Part shown: in pieces, positions 47,137 to 57,336 of the stretch | Layout of the letters: each line of letters opens with the position of its first letter | How positions within the stretch are numbered: the stretch's first letter is position 1 | Assembly (NCBI GenBank): GCA_021201295.1 | Contig: JAJQFE010000065.1 | Location: forward strand, 1-64,000 | Direction of reading: 5' to 3' | DNA length: 64,000 nucleotides | Source of the DNA: Tannerellaceae bacterium | Lineage (GTDB): Bacteria; Bacteroidota; Bacteroidia; Bacteroidales; Tannerellaceae | The notes under the pieces: generated by a model | What the model saw: only the letters and a program-made list of their open reading frames with translations | Told to the model about the DNA's origin: nothing | Database searches by the model: none | Position numbers and translations under genes: made by a program

Positions 47137-48422
47137 TCAAGGATTTTCTCCATTTTGGCAGCTTCGTTTTAACAATTGGAAACCAATCCGGCAAAACAGA
47201 CATTTTCTTTTTTCACAATATTCCCGTTTTAATTGAATAATCGATTGCGTATCCCCGGCATGCCTGGCCGAAATCCCTGCCTTAACAAACAAAGAAACAA
47301 TCCTGTTTTTCTCAGCAGGTAGCCGTTCCAGAATCTCAATGACCCGGTCCGTATATTCAGAAAGATGGTTCTGGTAACCATACGCAAACAACATGGGCAC
47401 TACAGTATTGATCAGTAATATATTTAAGGTCTGTTCTCCCAATAGCTTCTCCCTCTTTTCAGAAACCTGTTGAAAGTGATAGTGGGTTTCCCAGTACTCG
47501 GAAGGAGCCACCCGGAATATTTTTTTGATCTGCCGCAGATTTCCCGCTTCCAGTACAATCGAGAAAAGCGTATCATACTGTTTCCATATAGCAGCTAACT
47601 GAGCAATCTTTACATGGGGAAATTAGAAGGACGGATCCGCAGGTTTTTATATAACAGGTAGTCTAAGGGTAGCAGATCGAACTTATGTTTCAGAAAGCGG
47701 TATTCCTGTTGCATGAAACGGTAATAGTGACAATCCAGTGTTTCTTCCAGCATACCTGCCTGGCCAAAAAACATAGCTTCTATCTGGGACGAGGCTCCCC
47801 GTTGTTTGCGGATATATTTCAGAGGCAGGCTTCTGGCCAACCGTTCAAACGCATCACTATTTACGCCTAATCTGAAATTACGGGTCAGCGTAATATAGAA
47901 AACCTCATTTCAGTCATTTTCGTATTCATCCAAGAGATAAAGTATGTCCCCGATTTTCCTTTGTAAGCGTTCACTGAGCAATGCATTCAGCCAGGTATAT
48001 AAATGAACCGCTTCCAGTGAACTGAGTTGTGCCAGACAGGGAACGGAAAGATCCCGGGTGTTTAACCAGGCTGCACTTTTTCGGACTTCCTCCAGAATCT
48101 CTATGACGACTTGTGGGATGATCTCTCCATTCATACGGGTAATCTGCCTGTCATCCACTCCGACCACATGCAAAATGATGGAATCATAACGCTTGTCCAG
48201 ACTGTGCTTATGCTGGTGCCAGTCGGAAGCTTTGGAATGTATCTCCACATTCCCTACCCATACCGTATCCTCTATTTTCAATTTGGCATTAAAAAAATCC
48301 GGGCCGGCATCCGTATTATGAATTCCCGGATCAAGAATAGTCACTGGTTTCTCATCAGTCGTCAATAAGGTCATGCCTGGGTATAGCCTGTACTTCCAGA
48401 CATAGTGTAATAATCGTTCCAT
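47137..48422 (-). pseudogene. DUF2851 family protein, one stop and one frameshift
   Basis: Repaired length about 428 residues. The start MERLLHYVWKYRLYPGMTL, NTDAGPDFFNAKL and VGNVEIHSKASDWHQHKH are DUF2851 hallmarks. TGA 47910-47912 follows EYEND and replaces a probable Trp before NEVFYITLTRNFRLGVNSD. One C is missing in the run 47616-47619 (G on the plus strand), between NFP and HVKIAQLAALWKQYDT. The end is Cys-rich (CEKRKCLFC). Function unknown. It diverges from dapB, with a minus-strand -7 box at 48450-48457. Confidence 0.82.
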
Positions 48423-48532: not shown

Positions 48533-49249
48533 ATGAACATTGCACTGATTGGCTATGGGAAAATGGGAAAAACGATCGAACAGATCGCCCTGAACAGAGG
48601 CCACCAGATAGTCTCCATTATAGATATTGATAACCGGAAGGATTTTTATTCCGAGAACTTTAAAAAAGCAGACGTTGCCATTGAATTCACTACTCCGGCA
48701 ACAGCGTATGATAATTACCTGCAGTGTTTTGAAGCAAATGTTCCGGTAGTTTCCGGTACGACAGGTTGGTTAAACCATCTGGAGGAAATAAAAAAGAAAT
48801 GTACAGAAGAAGGAAAAACCTTTTTTTATGCTTCTAATTTCAGCATAGGGGTCAATATTTTCTTTGCTGTAAATAAATATTTAGCCGGACTTATGAACAA
48901 TTTCCCCGATTATGATGTAAAGATGACAGAGACCCATCATATACATAAACTGGATGCTCCCAGTGGTACGGCTATTACCCTGGCAGAAGGGATTATTGAA
49001 CAGATAGACCGGAAAAACAACTGGAAGTTAGGAAGAGTGGACCAGCCTGCGGAATTCCCGATTCATGCAATCCGGGAAGGGGAAGTTCCTGGTATTCATG
49101 AAATAGTATATGAATCTGAGGTCGACTATATCAGCATCAAACATGATGCAAAGAGCCGGGCAGGTTTTGCTTTAGGAGCAGTAGTGGCCGCCGAATTCAC
49201 TGCCGGAAAGACCGGTTTTCTGGGTATGGAAGATCTTTTTAAATTTTAA
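48533..49249 (+). CDS. dapB: 4-hydroxy-tetrahydrodipicolinate reductase
   Basis: 238 residues, intact. The nucleotide-binding start is NIALIGYGKMGKTIE. VVSGTTGWL and FFYASNFSIGVNIFFAVN follow, and the signature ETHHIHKLDAPSGTAITLAEG carries the catalytic His and Lys. It makes tetrahydrodipicolinate for lysine and peptidoglycan. It is first in dapB-lepB-lepB-wbqC. Confidence 0.95.
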   Translation: MNIALIGYGKMGKTIEQIALNRGHQIVSIIDIDNRKDFYSENFKKADVAIEFTTPATAYDNYLQCFEANVPVVSGTTGWLNHLEEIKKKCTEEGKTFFYASNFSIGVNIFFAVNKYLAGLMNNFPDYDVKMTETHHIHKLDAPSGTAITLAEGIIEQIDRKNNWKLGRVDQPAEFPIHAIREGEVPGIHEIVYESEVDYISIKHDAKSRAGFALGAVVAAEFTAGKTGFLGMEDLFKF

Positions 49250-49268: not shown

Positions 49269-50663
49269 ATGAAGCAATTTACATCCAAACAATGGATCAA
49301 ATTTAGTATTGCGGCTGTCTTATATATCCTTTTTACCATCTGGATGCAGAATGGTTGGCTTTTATTGGGTCTGATCGTGATAGCAGATATTTTCCTGACT
49401 CATTATATTCCCTGGGGTGCCTGGAAAAAATCCAAAAATCCGAAAGTCAGAAATGTACTGGAATGGGTAGACGATATTCTATTCGCTTTAGTTGCCGTCT
49501 ATCTGATCAATATCTTTATTTTCCAGAATTACCAGATTCCCAGTTCTTCGCTGGAGAAATCCTTACTTACCGGAGACTATTTATTTGTAAGTAAACTCAG
49601 TTACGGGCCCCGTATTCCCAACACACCACTCTCTTTCCCTTTGGTACAGAACACATTGCCGGTCTTTGATACTAAATCCTATCTGGAATGGCCGGAGTGG
49701 GGATATAAACGGGTGAAAGGTTTAGGAACCGTTAAACGGAATGACATCGTTGTATTTAACTTCCCGGCCGGTGATACGGTAGCACTCAAAAGCCAGAACC
49801 CGGATTATTACACCCAGGTTGCCATGTATGGATACGACCGTCTCCGCCTGAATAAAGCCGTGTACGGAGATATTATCTACCGTCCGGTGGACAAGCGGGA
49901 AAATTATGTCAAACGGTGCATCGGTATGCCGGGAGATGTGTTTGAGATCCGTGACAACCAGGTCTATATAAATGGCAAACCCGGGAAAAACCCCGAGCAT
50001 ATGCAGTTTAACTACTATGTGGAAACAGATGGTCCGCTGACAGAAGATCAATTCCGGTTACTGAATGTCAGCAAGGAAGACAGGGTCCTGGCATCCAATG
50101 ATAGTTATTACAGAAGCCTGTTGCCATTCCTGGGATTCAGTTCCAATACGTCCGGACAATATAATATGGTCTACCGCTTACCGCTTACTGAAAAAGCCCG
50201 GGAAATCGCCCGGAAGCTATCCGTAGTAAAAAATATGATTATTGAGCCGGAAGTCCTCGGAGGGCCTACCTATCCGGTAGACTATGAAACTGAATGGACA
50301 CGGGATAATTATGGTCCGTTATGGATTCCGAAAAAAGGAGAAACGATTACGCTGGATGAAAAGAATCTGGCACTTTATCACCGGTGTATAAAGAATTATG
50401 AAAATAACACACTGGAAATTGAGAATGGAAAAGTACTTATTAACGGACAGGAAGAAACTAACTACACTTTTAAATATGACTACTACTTCATGATGGGTGA
50501 CAACCGTCATAACAGTGCCGACAGCCGTGCCTGGGGATTTGTGCCGGAAGATCATGTGGTAGGTAAACCCATCCTGATCTGGTTATCACTGAATAAAGAC
50601 CGCAGCCTGTTTGATGGTGGTATCCGCTGGAACCGTATCTTCCGGATGGTACATACGGATTAA
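49269..50663 (+). CDS. lepB: Signal peptidase I
   Basis: 464 residues, long for the family because of an inserted region between catalytic boxes. Two N-terminal membrane helices are followed by NYQIPSSSLEKSLLTGD with catalytic Ser94 and YVKRCIGMPGDVFEI with catalytic Lys215. The C-terminal box is MGDNRHNSADSRAWGFVP. It removes signal peptides at the inner membrane. It starts 19 nt after dapB, and a second, apparently inactive relative follows 22 nt later. No lesion. Confidence 0.94.
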   Translation: MKQFTSKQWIKFSIAAVLYILFTIWMQNGWLLLGLIVIADIFLTHYIPWGAWKKSKNPKVRNVLEWVDDILFALVAVYLINIFIFQNYQIPSSSLEKSLLTGDYLFVSKLSYGPRIPNTPLSFPLVQNTLPVFDTKSYLEWPEWGYKRVKGLGTVKRNDIVVFNFPAGDTVALKSQNPDYYTQVAMYGYDRLRLNKAVYGDIIYRPVDKRENYVKRCIGMPGDVFEIRDNQVYINGKPGKNPEHMQFNYYVETDGPLTEDQFRLLNVSKEDRVLASNDSYYRSLLPFLGFSSNTSGQYNMVYRLPLTEKAREIARKLSVVKNMIIEPEVLGGPTYPVDYETEWTRDNYGPLWIPKKGETITLDEKNLALYHRCIKNYENNTLEIENGKVLINGQEETNYTFKYDYYFMMGDNRHNSADSRAWGFVPEDHVVGKPILIWLSLNKDRSLFDGGIRWNRIFRMVHTD

Positions 50664-50685: not shown

Positions 50686-51546
50686 ATGCAATATAAAAAT
50701 GGAATATCGTCTACCCTGAACTGGCTGTTTACCTTTTTGTTCGTATCAGCCGTGATTATGGGGATACGATATGTTTGCGTACAATCCTATCTGATATCGA
50801 CCCATGCGATGGAGAGTGCCCTCTATCCGGGAGACTATGTACTGGTGAACAAGCTCCCGGTGAAAGGAAATCCCGGACGTAACCGGATCATTCTTTTTCA
50901 AAGTCCTTTACGAAAAGATACACCGGATACCCCTATTTTGGTTAGTCGTTGCATCGGTATGCCAGGAGATACCATAGAAGTGAGCCGGGAAGGCTACCGG
51001 ATCAATCAGACACGGATTCCGCTTTCTCCGTATGCGTTATTAGTATATACCATAGATCGGGAGTTGACTCCGGAAGTAGAAACTATTCTTAAAAAACTGG
51101 GAATTCCTTCCAGGAACAGGGTGATAGCTGATCAGGAGATCGAATGGACCCTGACCCCTTTTGAGGTATACCAGCTTCAGGAAGAACTACCGGCAGAAAA
51201 AAACAGCCGGATACAGATGAAAGAATTTCCCGCCTATCAATTAGTGATCCCTAAAAAAGGCTATACCTACCGGTTAGACTCACAAACCTTACCGGCTGCC
51301 CGGGAAGCCATCCTGGCAGAGACAGACGGACAGGCGGTGATCCGGGAGCATACCCTGTTTATAGACGGGAGGGAAACCTCTTTTTTCCATTTCTCCCAGG
51401 ATTATTACTGGGTACTCTCCGATAATCCGGAAGAGGCCGTAGATTCCCGTTACTTGGGATTTATCCCGGCAGACCATATAATCGGAAATGTCTGGTTTCG
51501 CTGGCTGAGTAAAGATCGTGAACGTATTTTCAAGCTTATACAGTAA
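50686..51546 (+). CDS. LepB-like protein lacking the Ser-Lys dyad
   Basis: 286 residues, membrane helix at about 14-34. Alignment to the neighbouring LepB is clear (LISTHAMESALYPGDYVLVNK, LVSRCIGMPGDTIEV, LSDNPEEAVDSRYLGFIP). However, the residue before the conserved Met in box B is Ala41 where Ser is catalytic, and Ser87 replaces the general-base Lys in box D. The peptidase reaction should therefore be impossible. Folding motifs (PGD, MPGD, DSR) are kept and the frame is intact, so this is a maintained pseudoenzyme and not a decaying gene. It may regulate or chaperone the active LepB. Its stop is directly followed by the wbqC start. Confidence 0.85.
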   Translation: MQYKNGISSTLNWLFTFLFVSAVIMGIRYVCVQSYLISTHAMESALYPGDYVLVNKLPVKGNPGRNRIILFQSPLRKDTPDTPILVSRCIGMPGDTIEVSREGYRINQTRIPLSPYALLVYTIDRELTPEVETILKKLGIPSRNRVIADQEIEWTLTPFEVYQLQEELPAEKNSRIQMKEFPAYQLVIPKKGYTYRLDSQTLPAAREAILAETDGQAVIREHTLFIDGRETSFFHFSQDYYWVLSDNPEEAVDSRYLGFIPADHIIGNVWFRWLSKDRERIFKLIQ

Positions 51547-52170
51547 ATGTCATCTGCCTATCTATCCACTACCTATCTGGGACCGGTACAGCAATACTGC
51601 AAACTGGTGCAGTTTCCTGAAATCTATATGGAAACTGCCGAGAACTATATCAAACAGACCTACCGGAACCGTTGTACGATCGCCGGAGCAAACGGACCGT
51701 TATCTTTATCTGTTCCTATTGAAAAACCGGATACAGTCAAATGCCTGACTAAAGATATCCGTATTTCCGACCATGGGAACTGGAGACATTTACACTGGCA
51801 TGCGATGGTCTCTGCTTATCATATGAGTCCGTTTTTTGAATACTATGAAGATGATTTTGCTCCTTTCTACGAAAAAAAATATCACTTCCTGTTTGATTTC
51901 AATGAAGAGCTGAGGCGATTGATCTGTGAACTGACCGACATCCAGCCTTCGGTTATATACACAGCAGATTACCGACCGGAGGTTGCCCATGATTTCCGGG
52001 AGAGGATCCGCCCCAAACATCCGGGAGAGGATCCTGCTTTTTCTCCTGTTCCTTACTATCAGGTCTTCAGACAGAAACACGGCTTTCTACCCAATTTAAG
52101 TATGATCGATCTCTTATTCAATATGGGACCTGAAAGTCTATTGATATTAAAGGACTCTATTGTTCTTTAA
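51547..52170 (+). CDS. WbqC-like protein
   Basis: 207 residues. Family marks are STTYLGPVQQYCKLVQFPEIYMETAENY (residues about 7-34, containing the usual YxGPxxYY-like start) and RTY-type TYRNRCTIAGANGPLSLSVPI, then ISDHGNWRHLHWHAMVSAY. The WbqC family is linked to glycan or lipid modification but lacks a firm reaction. The start follows the lepB-like stop without any gap (TAAATG). Intact. Confidence 0.85.
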   Translation: MSSAYLSTTYLGPVQQYCKLVQFPEIYMETAENYIKQTYRNRCTIAGANGPLSLSVPIEKPDTVKCLTKDIRISDHGNWRHLHWHAMVSAYHMSPFFEYYEDDFAPFYEKKYHFLFDFNEELRRLICELTDIQPSVIYTADYRPEVAHDFRERIRPKHPGEDPAFSPVPYYQVFRQKHGFLPNLSMIDLLFNMGPESLLILKDSIVL

Positions 52171-52227: not shown

Positions 52228-52766
52228 ATGCAGTTCAATGAATTTTATATACTCTGGTATTCCCGGTTAAAAAGTTTTGCCCGTGAATATGTACTTTCGG
52301 AAGACGATGCGGAAGATATCGTCCAGGAGGTATTTACAGATCTGTATGAAAAATATGATACACTTACTCATCATACCAATCTGGTCGCCTATATTTTTAC
52401 GACTATCCGGAACCGTTGTATTGATCTGTTAAGACGTCGGATCATTGAACAGGAATCTGCCAGACGTATCCAGGAAGAGTATCTGCTCACTCTCCGTATG
52501 AAATTCAATTCCCTGGACATTTTAGATAATGAATTGTTTAAAGAAAACCAGTTGGAAGAGGTGATCGAAAAAGCCTTGAACACACTGCCGGAACGTTGCC
52601 GCCTAATCTTTATCAAACATAAAATAGAAGGAAAAAATAACAGGAAATAGCCCGGGAACTTAACCTGACCCCCAAAACAGTAGAAAACCAGATCGGTATT
52701 GCCTACCAGAAACTTCGCCGGGAACTAAAAAACTATCTTCCGCTACTTATTTTCCTGCTTTCCTGA
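52228..52766 (+). pseudogene. ECF RNA polymerase sigma factor, frameshifted in region 4
   Basis: Repaired length about 179 residues. Region 2 is present (FYILWYSRLKSFAREYVLSE, then DAEDIVQEVFTDLYEKY, then RNRCIDLLRRR). Region 4 begins ALNTLPERCRLIFIKHKIEG and breaks near 52640-52642, where one base is missing before EIARELNLTPKTVENQIGIA, the DNA-recognition helix. The frame then ends at TGA 52764-52766. As read, the product would lack -35 recognition. It pairs with the FecR gene 174 nt downstream and should drive the SusC-SusD-GH97 operon. Confidence 0.85.
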
Positions 52767-54086: not shown

Positions 54087-57000
54087 ATGCACAAAAAAAC
54101 CAAAGAATTCATCCGCATCATGAAAATATCCTTCGTCTTATTATTCGTTTGTGTTTTTCAGTTATTGGCGATAGATAGCGGAGCACAAAATGCGATCATT
54201 CATCTCCCTTCTCCACAGCTAACCGTAGGAGAATTGATTGATGAAATAGAACATCAGACTGATTATTTGGTCATCTATAGCAACAGTGAAATAGATGTGG
54301 AACATACAGTCAACCTACAGAATCGTTCCGCCAGTGTATCTGATTATCTAGCGGAAGTGTTCAGTGACGGAGTGCTGAACTATGAATTTGAAAATAATTA
54401 TATTATTCTATCAAAGAAAACAGTTCTACCCGCCATGCAACAAACCCGGAAAAAAGTATCCGGAACCGTAGTGGACCAGACAGGAGAAGCAGTGATCGGA
54501 GCCAATATCGTGGTGAAAGGAACTACGAACGGAACCATCACGGACCTGGACGGAAACTTTACGTTAGAGATACCCGAAGCATCCGCGACATTAGTGATCT
54601 CCTACATCGGTTACCATACCCAGGAAATCCCGGTAAATAATCAAAGCGTGATCCAGATCCGGCTTCAGGAAGATACACAGAAGTTAGATGAAGTGGTAGT
54701 AGTAGGATACGGCACCCAACGGAAAGGAGAACTCACCTCCTCTATTGCCAGCGTAAAAAGTGAGTCCTTCATCCAGGGAACCATACAGGATGCGGCCCAG
54801 CTTTTACAGGGAAAAGTAGCAGGTCTGGGAGTAATCCTTCCGAACGACGACCCGACAGCAACAACCCAGATCATGTTGCGTGGAGTGGGAGCCCTTAACT
54901 CTTCTATTTCTCCCTTAGTGATCATTGACGGAGTTCCCGGTGACCTGAATACGGTGGCCCCGGAAGATATAGAAAGTATAGATGTGGTAAAAGATGGTTC
55001 GGCAGCAGCAATCTACGGAACCCGGGGGAATAACGGAGTGATCTTTGTTACCACCAAAAAGGTCCGGGGAGAAGTTCCCATGACGATCGATGTCCATAGC
55101 TACATCACTACCCAGACCATCAAAAAAAGACTGGATATGATGAATGCTACCCAGTACCGGGAATTAGTCAACCAGGGAAAACCAGGCGCGGTAGATTACG
55201 AATACGACACCAACTGGCTGGATGAAATCATGCAGACACCTTTTCCTGGGTGACAAATGCCAGTATCAAGGGAGGTTCCGGACAGTCTAACTACATCGCC
55301 AATGTGAACTATCGTTCCGGACAGGGAATTATCCGCCGGTCCAACAATGAGGTCCTGACCACCCGTCTGGAAGTAAACCATTCGATGTAGGATAACCTGT
55401 TAAAGCTAAACCTGAATATTATGGGCCGTGAACAAAATACCATGCCTTTGCAGAGGGTTCCAGTTTCAACCAGGAGATCTACCGGAATGCATTAGCCAAC
55501 ATTCCTACGGACCGGGTAAAGGATGATGCCGGAAACTGGCAGGAAAGACCCGCCATGTATGAATATGCCAATACCCGTGCCCTGATCGAAGAAAGTGAAG
55601 GAGAAAATAAAAGTAGCCAGTTACGGACCTTCGGTTCAGCCACGTTGACCCCGATTGAACAGTTAAACCTGAAAGCCCTGGTATCCCATACCCGGTACCA
55701 TGAAACACAGGGGTATTCCGAATCCCATAACCATATTTCCAACATACGGGACAACCGGAACGGCCGTGCCTATAAAGGAAATATCTTTACCCAGGAAAAC
55801 CTGCTGGAACTAACCGCTTAGTACAAAGAATCCTTTGGCGAACACCACCTGACCGGATTGTTAGGCTATTCCTACCAGGATAATATCTGGGAGATGAACT
55901 ACATGCGGAACCGGGACTTTGCCTCCGACCAGTACACCTATCACAATATGGGAGCCGGAGCCGGACTGATGCGTGGAGAAGCAGATATGTACTCGGCAAA
56001 ATCCAAGTCTGTCCTGATCGGTTTTTTTGCCCGAGCCAACTACAACTACCAGAACAGGTATCTGGCCTCCGTCAGTATCCGTCATGAAGGTTCTTCCAAA
56101 TTCAGAGCAAACAATAAATGGGGTAATTTCCCGGCGGCATCCATCGGCTGGAACCTGTCCAACGAAAAATTTATGGAAGGGATTCAGGCCATATCCAACC
56201 TGAAACTAAGAGCAGGATTTGGGGTGACCGGAACCATTGCCGGAAGTGAATATGCCTCGTTAAGCCGGTTGACTTCCAATATGAATTTTCTGGTCGATGG
56301 CAACAATTGGTTAACCAACCTGAAACCGTATGAAAACGCCAATCCGGACCTGCGCTAGGAAAAGAAAGAAGAATGGAACCTGGGAGTAGATTTCGGGTTA
56401 CTGGAAGGGCGTATTTACGGAAGCATCGATCTCTATAACTGGACAACCAAAGACCTCTTATGGAATTACCAGGTACCTACGCCTCCTTATCTTTATTCGG
56501 AAATACTGGCAAACGCAGGTACCATAAATAACAAAGGGATAGAGATCAGTGTAAGTGTGATTCCTGTCCGGACCAAAGACTTCCAATGGATCACTACGGC
56601 CAACTATTCCACGAATAAAAATAAGATCGTGTCCCTGTCCGACAACCGGTTCAAAGTCGAATCCGGGTACATTGACGCCGGTTATATCGGGACTACCATT
56701 AAACAGAAGACCCACCAGTTGCATGAAGGAGGAAAAGCCGGCAACTTCTGAGGATTCAAAGTGGTAGATATAGACGAAGAGGGTAAATGGATTATCGAAG
56801 GGAAAGATGGCAATCCCAAACCCATCGGTGAACAGCAACCGGACGATAAAACAGTGATCGGAAACGGGCTGCCCAAACATTTCCTGAGCTGGGACAACAG
56901 TTTTGTCTATAAAAACTTTGACCTGAACATCACCATGCGGGGAACCTTCGGCTATGATATATTGAATCTCCCCCGGCTGTACTACGACTGCCCGGTAAAT

Positions 57001-57336
57001 CTGACCCACGGGAATTTATTATCAACAGCCTATGATCCGGTATTCGGCAAACAGCCGTTAAGTGACCAGCAGGAATTACAGTATGTAAGTTACTTTATAG
57101 AAAAAGGGGACTTCTGGAAAATAGATAACATTACGTTAGGCTATAATTTCACGTTCAATAACAAGTATATCAAACGCCTGCGGCTGTATGCTTCCGGAAG
57201 TAACCTAATCACGATTACCGGCTATAGCGGTATTGATCCGGAAGTAAATGTTTCGACGTTAGATCCGGGCGTGGACGCCATCAACCATTATCCTTCCACC
57301 CGTTCCTATACCTTCGGGGCCATGGTCACTTTTTAA
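54087..57336 (+). pseudogene. SusC/FecA-type TonB-dependent transporter with STN domain, six lesions
   Basis: About 1,083 residues if repaired. A signal peptide (ISFVLLFVCVFQLLAIDSGA) is followed by an STN signalling domain (LTVGELIDEIEHQTDYLVIY), a carboxypeptidase-like domain (VVDQTGEAVIGANIVVKGTT), a TonB-box region, the plug (LLQGKVAGLGVI, AAAIYGTRGNNGVIFVTTKK) and the barrel. Lesions are T-run loss 55241-55244, TAG 55388-55390, base loss near 55440, TAG 55819-55821, TAG 56356-56358 (DLR*EKKEEW, family Trp) and TGA 56749-56751 (GNF*GFKVVD). The STN domain should signal to the FecR upstream. The only intact stretch is the N-terminal third. Confidence 0.87.

What the first reader, a model, noticed from the sequence alone, without database searches (positions are those of the whole stretch)
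50686..51546. A maintained LepB paralogue lacking both catalytic residues
Next to a normal signal peptidase (Ser94, Lys215) lies an intact 286-residue LepB-like protein with Ala41 at the Ser position and Ser87 at the Lys position, while the structural motifs remain. In a window full of broken genes this one is undamaged, implying selection for a non-catalytic role such as a partner of LepB or a preprotein-binding factor.
Basis: partly seen in the sequence, partly recalled or inferred. Interest (0 to 1): 0.55.

Follow-up and report, generated by a model that had tools for sequence, protein, structure and literature searches.

The report
Dead signal peptidase twin in Bacteroidales
Next to the enzyme that clips the export tags off secreted proteins, many Bacteroidales keep a second copy whose cutting residues have decayed but whose body is kept by selection, probably because it still binds something.

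Summary
LepB2 (50686-51546, 286 aa, PF10502) has Ala41 and Ser87 where its neighbour LepB1 has Ser94 and Lys215. It lies between lepB1 and wbqC, downstream of dapB.

The gene is widespread. In the window's family, inferred to be Tannerellaceae, 53 of 59 genomes carry it; the Lys is absent in 53 of 53, the Ser in 28 of 53. Over the order and family samples, 80 of 83 S26 proteins encoded downstream of LepB1 lack at least one dyad residue, 49 both. The Lys pocket has gone too: the Gly272 equivalent is kept in 5 of 80 Lys-less proteins against 180 of 183 dyad-intact ones. Asp280/Arg282 and the hydrophobic S1 pocket remain.

dN/dS is 0.04-0.26 in 14 family pairs, so the protein is maintained. Outside Bacteroidales, in loci picked for two copies, the downstream copy keeps the dyad in 15 of 18. 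Likely history: an active tandem duplicate that lost catalysis in Bacteroidales, and separately in one other family.

Best reading: a pseudo-signal-peptidase that still binds peptides or LepB1, comparable to SipA and SpsA. The binding partner is inferred. New here is the clade-wide, graded decay.

The parts
48533..49249 (+). dapB, upstream neighbour, conserved synteny
   Evidence: ORF; PF05173 3.8e-37 and PF01113 9.9e-17; order dapB-lepB1-lepB2-wbqC seen in many relatives
49269..50663 (+). lepB1, canonical type I signal peptidase, 464 aa; Ser94 codon 49548-49550, Lys215 codon 49911-49913
50686..51546 (+). lepB2, S26-fold protein without the Ser-Lys dyad, 286 aa
50695..50778 (+). N-terminal helix (residues 4-31 in the model), read as the single transmembrane anchor; it aligns with the hydrophobic segment just before Ser94 of LepB1
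   Evidence: model secondary structure, alignment; the transmembrane reading is inference
50806..50808 (+). Ala41 codon (GCG) at the catalytic Ser position
50944..50946 (+). Ser87 codon (AGT) at the general-base Lys position
51025..51222 (+). alpha/beta insert (about residues 114-179) whose model matches ferredoxin-like/PII-like folds at Z 5-7; a similar segment aligns in LepB1; two family LepB2 proteins (L227, L233) seem to lack most of it
   Evidence: Z under 8 may mean only a common arrangement
51418..51438 (+). Degenerate box E: Ser245 at the Gly272 position and Ala251 at the Ser278 position
51442..51450 (+). Asp253-Ser254-Arg255, the retained Asp280/Ser281/Arg282 motif
51547..52170 (+). 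wbqC-like gene, starting immediately after the lepB2 stop codon; frequent downstream neighbour
   Evidence: PF08889 E 2.6e-31, synteny

Best explanation
LepB2 is a maintained pseudo-signal-peptidase. A tandem copy of lepB, still with its dyad in most of the other Bacteroidia loci I looked at, lost its catalytic machinery in Bacteroidales while keeping the N-terminal anchor, the signal-peptidase fold and the hydrophobic floor of the substrate pocket. It probably still engages an extended peptide (the signal-peptide c-region of preproteins or lipoproteins, or a strand of LepB1) without cutting it, and so acts as a partner, recruiting factor or modulator of LepB1 at the inner membrane. Shown here: homology, loss of the Ser, Lys, Gly272 and Ser278 equivalents, wide distribution, graded loss, purifying selection, conserved gene order. 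Inferred: absence of proteolysis, peptide binding, and LepB1 or the preprotein as the partner.
For: Dyad lost in the window protein. Lys absent in 64 of 64 clade I proteins (S51, G10, A2, T1). 80 of 83 downstream copies lack a dyad residue, 49 both. Gly272 kept in 5 of 80 Lys-less and 180 of 183 dyad-intact S26 proteins, Ser278 in 9 of 80 and 180 of 183, while Asp280 (78 of 80) and Arg282 (77 of 80) stay. S1-pocket positions stay hydrophobic in clade I: I86 eq. I/V/L 64 of 64, M91 eq. M/L 64 of 64, L95 eq. L/V/M/I 64 of 64, I144 eq. V/L/I/M/F 61 of 64 (pocket assignment recalled). dN/dS 0.044-0.257 in 14 pairs with finite dS. Model (pLDDT 82) matches E. coli LepB (Z 14.4) and SipA (Z 13.4). 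Precedent: SipA, dead S26, is required for pilus assembly and has Gly272 to Asn and Ser278 to Arg (PMC4049620, passages).
Against: No interaction or phenotype data. 84 of 170 LepB1 loci show no further S26 gene downstream of the last canonical copy, and 4 of 59 family genomes lack LepB2, so it is dispensable in some lineages. Positions flanking the missing Ser changed (Pro87 eq. to Ser in 53 of 64 clade I), so the cleft may be reshaped. In SipA a mutation meant to block the S3 site did not stop pilus polymerisation (PMC4049620, passages), so a conserved cleft need not be the working surface. 27 of 64 clade I proteins keep a Ser at the nucleophile position. The model region 248-256 beside the site is poor (pLDDT under 50), and Foldseek's whole-chain superposition is loose (rmsd 11, TM 0.38/0.47).
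Confidence: 0.6

Rival explanations
1. LepB2 is a pseudogene in slow decay that has not yet acquired a stop or frameshift.
For: Neighbouring genes in the window are broken; LepB2 evolves faster than LepB1 (omega higher in 13 of 14 pairs); some lineages lack it; 3 of 53 family copies are short (201, 216, 228 aa).
Against: dN/dS 0.04-0.26 in 14 pairs; 50 of 53 family copies are open over 276-332 aa, and the short ones still reach the DSR motif; PGD, DN and DSR motifs near-invariant.
Confidence: 0.04
2. LepB2 is still a protease that uses other residues, for example Ser38/Thr39, or the retained Ser with a different base.
For: Ser38 is present in 53 of 64 and Thr39 in 50 of 64 clade I proteins, where LepB1 has Pro and Thr/Ser; 27 of 64 keep the nucleophile-position Ser.
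Against: None of these is invariant; the Lys position holds only Ser, Gly, Ala or Thr in clade I; Gly272 and Ser278, which frame the base, are mostly lost with it.
Confidence: 0.1
3. LepB2 has a dedicated client unrelated to general preprotein processing, as SipA has in pilus assembly, for instance a surface-lipoprotein, type IX or WbqC-linked envelope pathway.
For: SipA precedent; frequent adjacency to wbqC; LepB2-specific conserved residues, some in the insert (Ser34, Pro115, Arg143, Glu160, Glu212).
Against: Adjacency to lepB1 is just as conserved, and lepB1-wbqC without lepB2 also occurs (for example L163, L168, L177), so synteny does not single out a client.
Confidence: 0.25

Closest known systems
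SipA of Streptococcus pyogenes (S26 fold, PDB 4n31)
   Same: S26 fold (Z 13.4) with both dyad residues replaced and Gly272 and Ser278 equivalents lost; hydrophobic peptide cleft retained (PMC4049620, passages).
   Different: SipA belongs to a pilus cluster of a Gram-positive and has Asp/Gly at the dyad; LepB2 lies beside lepB1 in Bacteroidales with Ala/Ser (other residues elsewhere) and has a large alpha/beta insert. SipA was not placed on a tree here.
SpsA of Staphylococcus aureus
   Same: Inactive S26 homologue in a genome with an essential active one, SpsB (PMC12445088, passages); adjacency of spsA and spsB is recalled.
   Different: Described there as dispensable; not compared by sequence here. 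LepB2 belongs to another phylum and graded stages of its decay can be seen in relatives.
Active second LepB copies in other Bacteroidia (e.g. L299, L302-L307)
   Same: Same locus (dapB-lepB-lepB, sometimes wbqC); with LepB2, those that were placed on the tree fall outside the 32-row group that holds the first copies (L307 was not placed).
   Different: They keep Ser, Lys, Gly272 and Ser278.

Membership tests
Type I signal peptidase superfamily S26 (PF10502), fold | Profile match over the whole domain and S26 fold | tested here: met
   PF10502 1e-24, residues 11-273; Z 14.4 to E. coli LepB
Active type I signal peptidase | Ser nucleophile and Lys general base | tested here: not met
   Ala41 and Ser87; in clade I Lys 0 of 64
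Active type I signal peptidase | Gly272 and Ser278 of box E around the Lys | tested here: not met
   Ser245 and Ala251 in the window protein; kept in 5 of 80 and 9 of 80 Lys-less proteins
Active type I signal peptidase | Cleaves preproteins | not testable with these tools
   needs an assay
SipA-like non-catalytic S26 proteins (works like) | Both dyad residues replaced, fold and hydrophobic cleft kept | tested here: met
   SipA features from PMC4049620 passages
SipA-like non-catalytic S26 proteins (member of) | Descent from the same dead ancestor / pilus cluster | tested here: inconclusive
   No pilus gene among the neighbouring ORFs scanned and the relatives found are Bacteroidia copies, but SipA was not placed on a tree
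SpsA-like | Dead copy beside the active gene | tested here: inconclusive
   The arrangement holds for LepB2; that it defines SpsA is recalled and SpsA was not compared

The most novel reading that the evidence does not exclude
Bacteroidales run a two-subunit signal peptidase: LepB1 cuts, and LepB2, a former peptidase, is a standing non-catalytic subunit that selects or presents preproteins, reached through an ordered loss (Lys-pocket Gly272 and Ser278 first, then Ser and Lys) still visible in living intermediates.
Probability: 0.3. Interest if true: 0.72.

Novelty: new variant of a known kind. Interest (0 to 1): 0.45.

Why it matters
Bacterial signal peptidase is usually treated as a single-protein enzyme and an antibiotic target (recalled). 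A widespread dead partner gene next to it in Bacteroidales, with dyad-bearing cousins in other Bacteroidia and intermediates in between, would let one ask what a signal-peptidase fold does when it no longer cuts, and whether Bacteroidales export depends on it. Parabacteroides carry it, so gut-bacterial genetics can test it.

Tried and rejected
Stop-codon recoding as the reason for the broken neighbours: stops in two split genes differ (TGA in DUF2851, TAA in a third S26 gene) and the DUF2851 and TonB-receptor genes also change frame, so ordinary pseudogenes fit better.

A single-step loss of both residues: not favoured. On the 69-row tree the fewest changes are 6 for Lys, 13 for Ser and 3 for 'dyad intact or not'; the last count was 8 on the 110-row quick tree and 4 on the tree with other orders. 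Parsimony counts cannot tell gain from loss and many forks are weak. One common LepB2 clade was neither shown nor rejected: 44 LepB2 rows lie on one side of a branch with support 78/96, and clades I and II are not joined.

Rows dropped or chosen before counts: of 53 family LepB2 proteins 21 went into the tree; for, 11 long or odd rows of those 110 were left out and LepB1 rows thinned (69 kept); one search uses 37 of the earlier rows plus 32 new ones from 16 of the 18 two-copy places or others like them. In one search, loci whose LepB1 C-terminus repeated an earlier one were dropped and 4 loci without a LepB1 by my rule were set aside (L012, L016, L129, L202). A downstream S26 gene was counted only if an ORF of 90 aa or more scored E under 0.01; more diverged copies would be missed. 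The Gly272/Ser278 contrast was grouped on Ser and Lys only; its 273 proteins include a few loci held twice. G205's LepB1 region was not fetched. The 14 dN/dS pairs share members and several have dS above 1.

Literature: searches for an inactive LepB in Bacteroidetes listed no paper that by its title or abstract start describes one; only passages of PMC4049620 and PMC12445088 were read, and most subscription papers are not held.

The Z 5-7 matches of the insert to PII/ACT-like domains were not taken as function.

Full report
What is there. The window is contig C54 of a 3.7 Mb genome. The nearest named relatives found are Tannerellaceae MAG MI.5_5 (77%, residues 1-286) and three Parabacteroides (50-53%), so the family coded f1 is very probably Tannerellaceae; this is inferred, since codes and names cannot be matched directly. 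Gene order: dapB 48533-49249, lepB1 49269-50663, lepB2 50686-51546, wbqC 51547-52170, all on the + strand, with 22 bases between lepB1 and lepB2 and none between lepB2 and wbqC. Both LepB proteins match PF10502 and TIGR02227. Ser94 and Lys215 of LepB1 align with Ala41 and Ser87 of LepB2.

How common it is. P0001 was searched in 149 genomes of the order (145 with a match) and alignment A1 in 59 genomes of the family (59 with a match). Loci around LepB1 were fetched for most of them and read by script. After removing repeats there are 170 LepB1 loci: 83 have a further S26 gene downstream (53 in the family, 30 elsewhere), 84 do not, 3 are cut by a contig end. The 84 include 6 loci with two canonical copies (L159, L181, L184, L194, L195, L200). 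In the family, 53 of 59 genomes have LepB2, 4 lack it, 1 is cut by a contig end and 1 was not fetched.

State of the site. Of the 83 downstream copies, 80 lack at least one dyad residue and 49 lack both (one of these by a gap at the Ser column); L025 and L165 keep Ser and Lys but have Asp for Gly272 and Ala for Ser278; L256 is intact at all four. Over the 83 the Lys position is Ser 57, Gly 11, Lys 7, Ala 5, Met 1, Thr 1, Arg 1. In the 53 family members it is Ser 43, Gly 9, Ala 1, and the Ser position is Ala 25, Ser 25, Thr 1, Phe 1, Arg 1. So the Lys loss is fixed in the family sample and the Ser position drifts. Among 273 S26 proteins grouped only by Ser and Lys, Gly272 is present in 180 of 183 dyad-intact, 5 of 80 Lys-less and 0 of 4 Ser-less Lys-keeping proteins (one of the four is cut before that point); Ser278 in 180 of 183, 9 of 80 and 0 of 4; Asp280 in 183 of 183, 78 of 80 and 3 of 4. 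PMC4049620 (passages) says that a side chain at Gly272 would clash with the Lys, that Ser278 helps to stabilise it, and that SipA has lost both. The decay of LepB2 is therefore of the whole Lys pocket, not of two isolated residues.

What stays. In 64 clade I proteins Arg88, Gly94, Asp95, Pro189 and Trp242 are invariant and Met42, Gly49 and Asp253 are at 98%. The positions that form the S1 floor in E. coli LepB (recalled) stay hydrophobic. Residues that distinguish clade I from LepB1 include Ser34, Ser38, Pro115, Arg143, Glu160, Glu212 and Ser245 (80-92% each). The alpha/beta insert is less essential: two short family copies (L227, L233) seem to lack most of it yet keep the motifs around it.

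Selection. Nei-Gojobori omega on the 19 family pairs most alike by shared 4-mers: 14 have finite dS, LepB2 0.044-0.257, LepB1 of the same pairs 0.022-0.132; LepB2 is higher in 13 of 14. The gene is constrained, roughly half as tightly as LepB1. The pairs are not independent and several have dS above 1.

History. With the four trait columns removed, a careful tree of 69 rows puts 44 LepB2 rows on one side of a branch (support 78/96). Clade I (the family plus 11 loci from other families) is always Lys-less; clade II (12 rows) mixes SK, RK, NK, KK, MK, NS, EM, AS, TG and RS. In 119 genomes of the class (113 with a match) I picked 20 places, most because two matches lay close together; 18 have two copies, and the downstream one is Ser/Lys/Gly/Ser in 15 and Asp/Gln in 3, all from one family coded f157. 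A tree with most of these rows puts the first copies in a 32-row group (88/90), outside which lie clade I (100/100), clade II (88/93), f157 (100/99) and the dyad-bearing second copies of eleven loci; but the second copies of L308 and L309 sit inside the first-copy group as local duplicates, and so do L256 and the extra canonical copies of L159, L181, L184 and L200. So not every tandem pair is the same old pair. The simplest history is an old active duplicate that lost catalysis in Bacteroidales and again in f157; the backbone support is moderate. Because the 18 loci were chosen, their proportions are not frequencies.

Structure. The model from A1 has mean pLDDT 82 and pTM 0.74, weak at 248-256. 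VIA-align gives E. coli LepB 3s04 Z 14.4 (rmsd 3.8, 153 aligned) and SipA 4n31 Z 13.4 (rmsd 2.8, 126 aligned). Foldseek's best hits are the same family (E 9e-08), though whole-chain rmsd is about 11. Sequence search of the PDB finds signal peptidases (4nv4, 3.8e-07) and, weakly, SipA (0.011).

Mechanism. No proteolysis is expected from Ala41/Ser87 with a side chain at Gly272. Keeping the anchor, fold and pocket floor while losing the chemistry is what a binding or scaffolding role predicts. Whether the partner is LepB1, preproteins or a special client is not decided; SipA shows that a dead S26 protein can be indispensable for one client, SpsA that one can be dispensable (PMC12445088, passages).

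Verdict. Observation right; interpretation right about non-catalytic maintenance, open about the partner.

Noticed in passing
window 47137-48422 (-), 52228-52650 (+), 54087-57336 (+): DUF2851 and a TonB-dependent receptor are broken by stops and frame changes, and a sigma-factor ORF matches region 2 only; the relative L035 also has a split DUF2851, while Parabacteroides L036 and L037 have it in one frame.
   Followed up: partly
L001 (own genome, contig C24), 1438-2307 (-): A third S26 gene, with Ser and Lys in its N-terminal half, is split by a TAA stop; the gene next to it holds a DUF1573 domain. Other S26 genes of about 290-310 aa lie outside the lepB1 locus in other family genomes.
   Followed up: partly
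L297, L298, L312: One other family (f157) of the class has a second LepB copy with Asp/Gln at the dyad but Gly272 kept: an apparently independent loss.
   Followed up: partly
L076 3935-5101 (Larkinella terrae): A 389 aa LepB with Ala at the Ser position but Lys kept (IPTP[A]MENSL) is the only S26 protein found in the fetched locus.
   Followed up: no
LepB2 residues about 114-179; L227, L233: The LepB proteins here carry an alpha/beta insert in the cap that resembles ferredoxin-like/PII domains at Z 5-7; two family LepB2 proteins seem to have lost most of it.
   Followed up: partly
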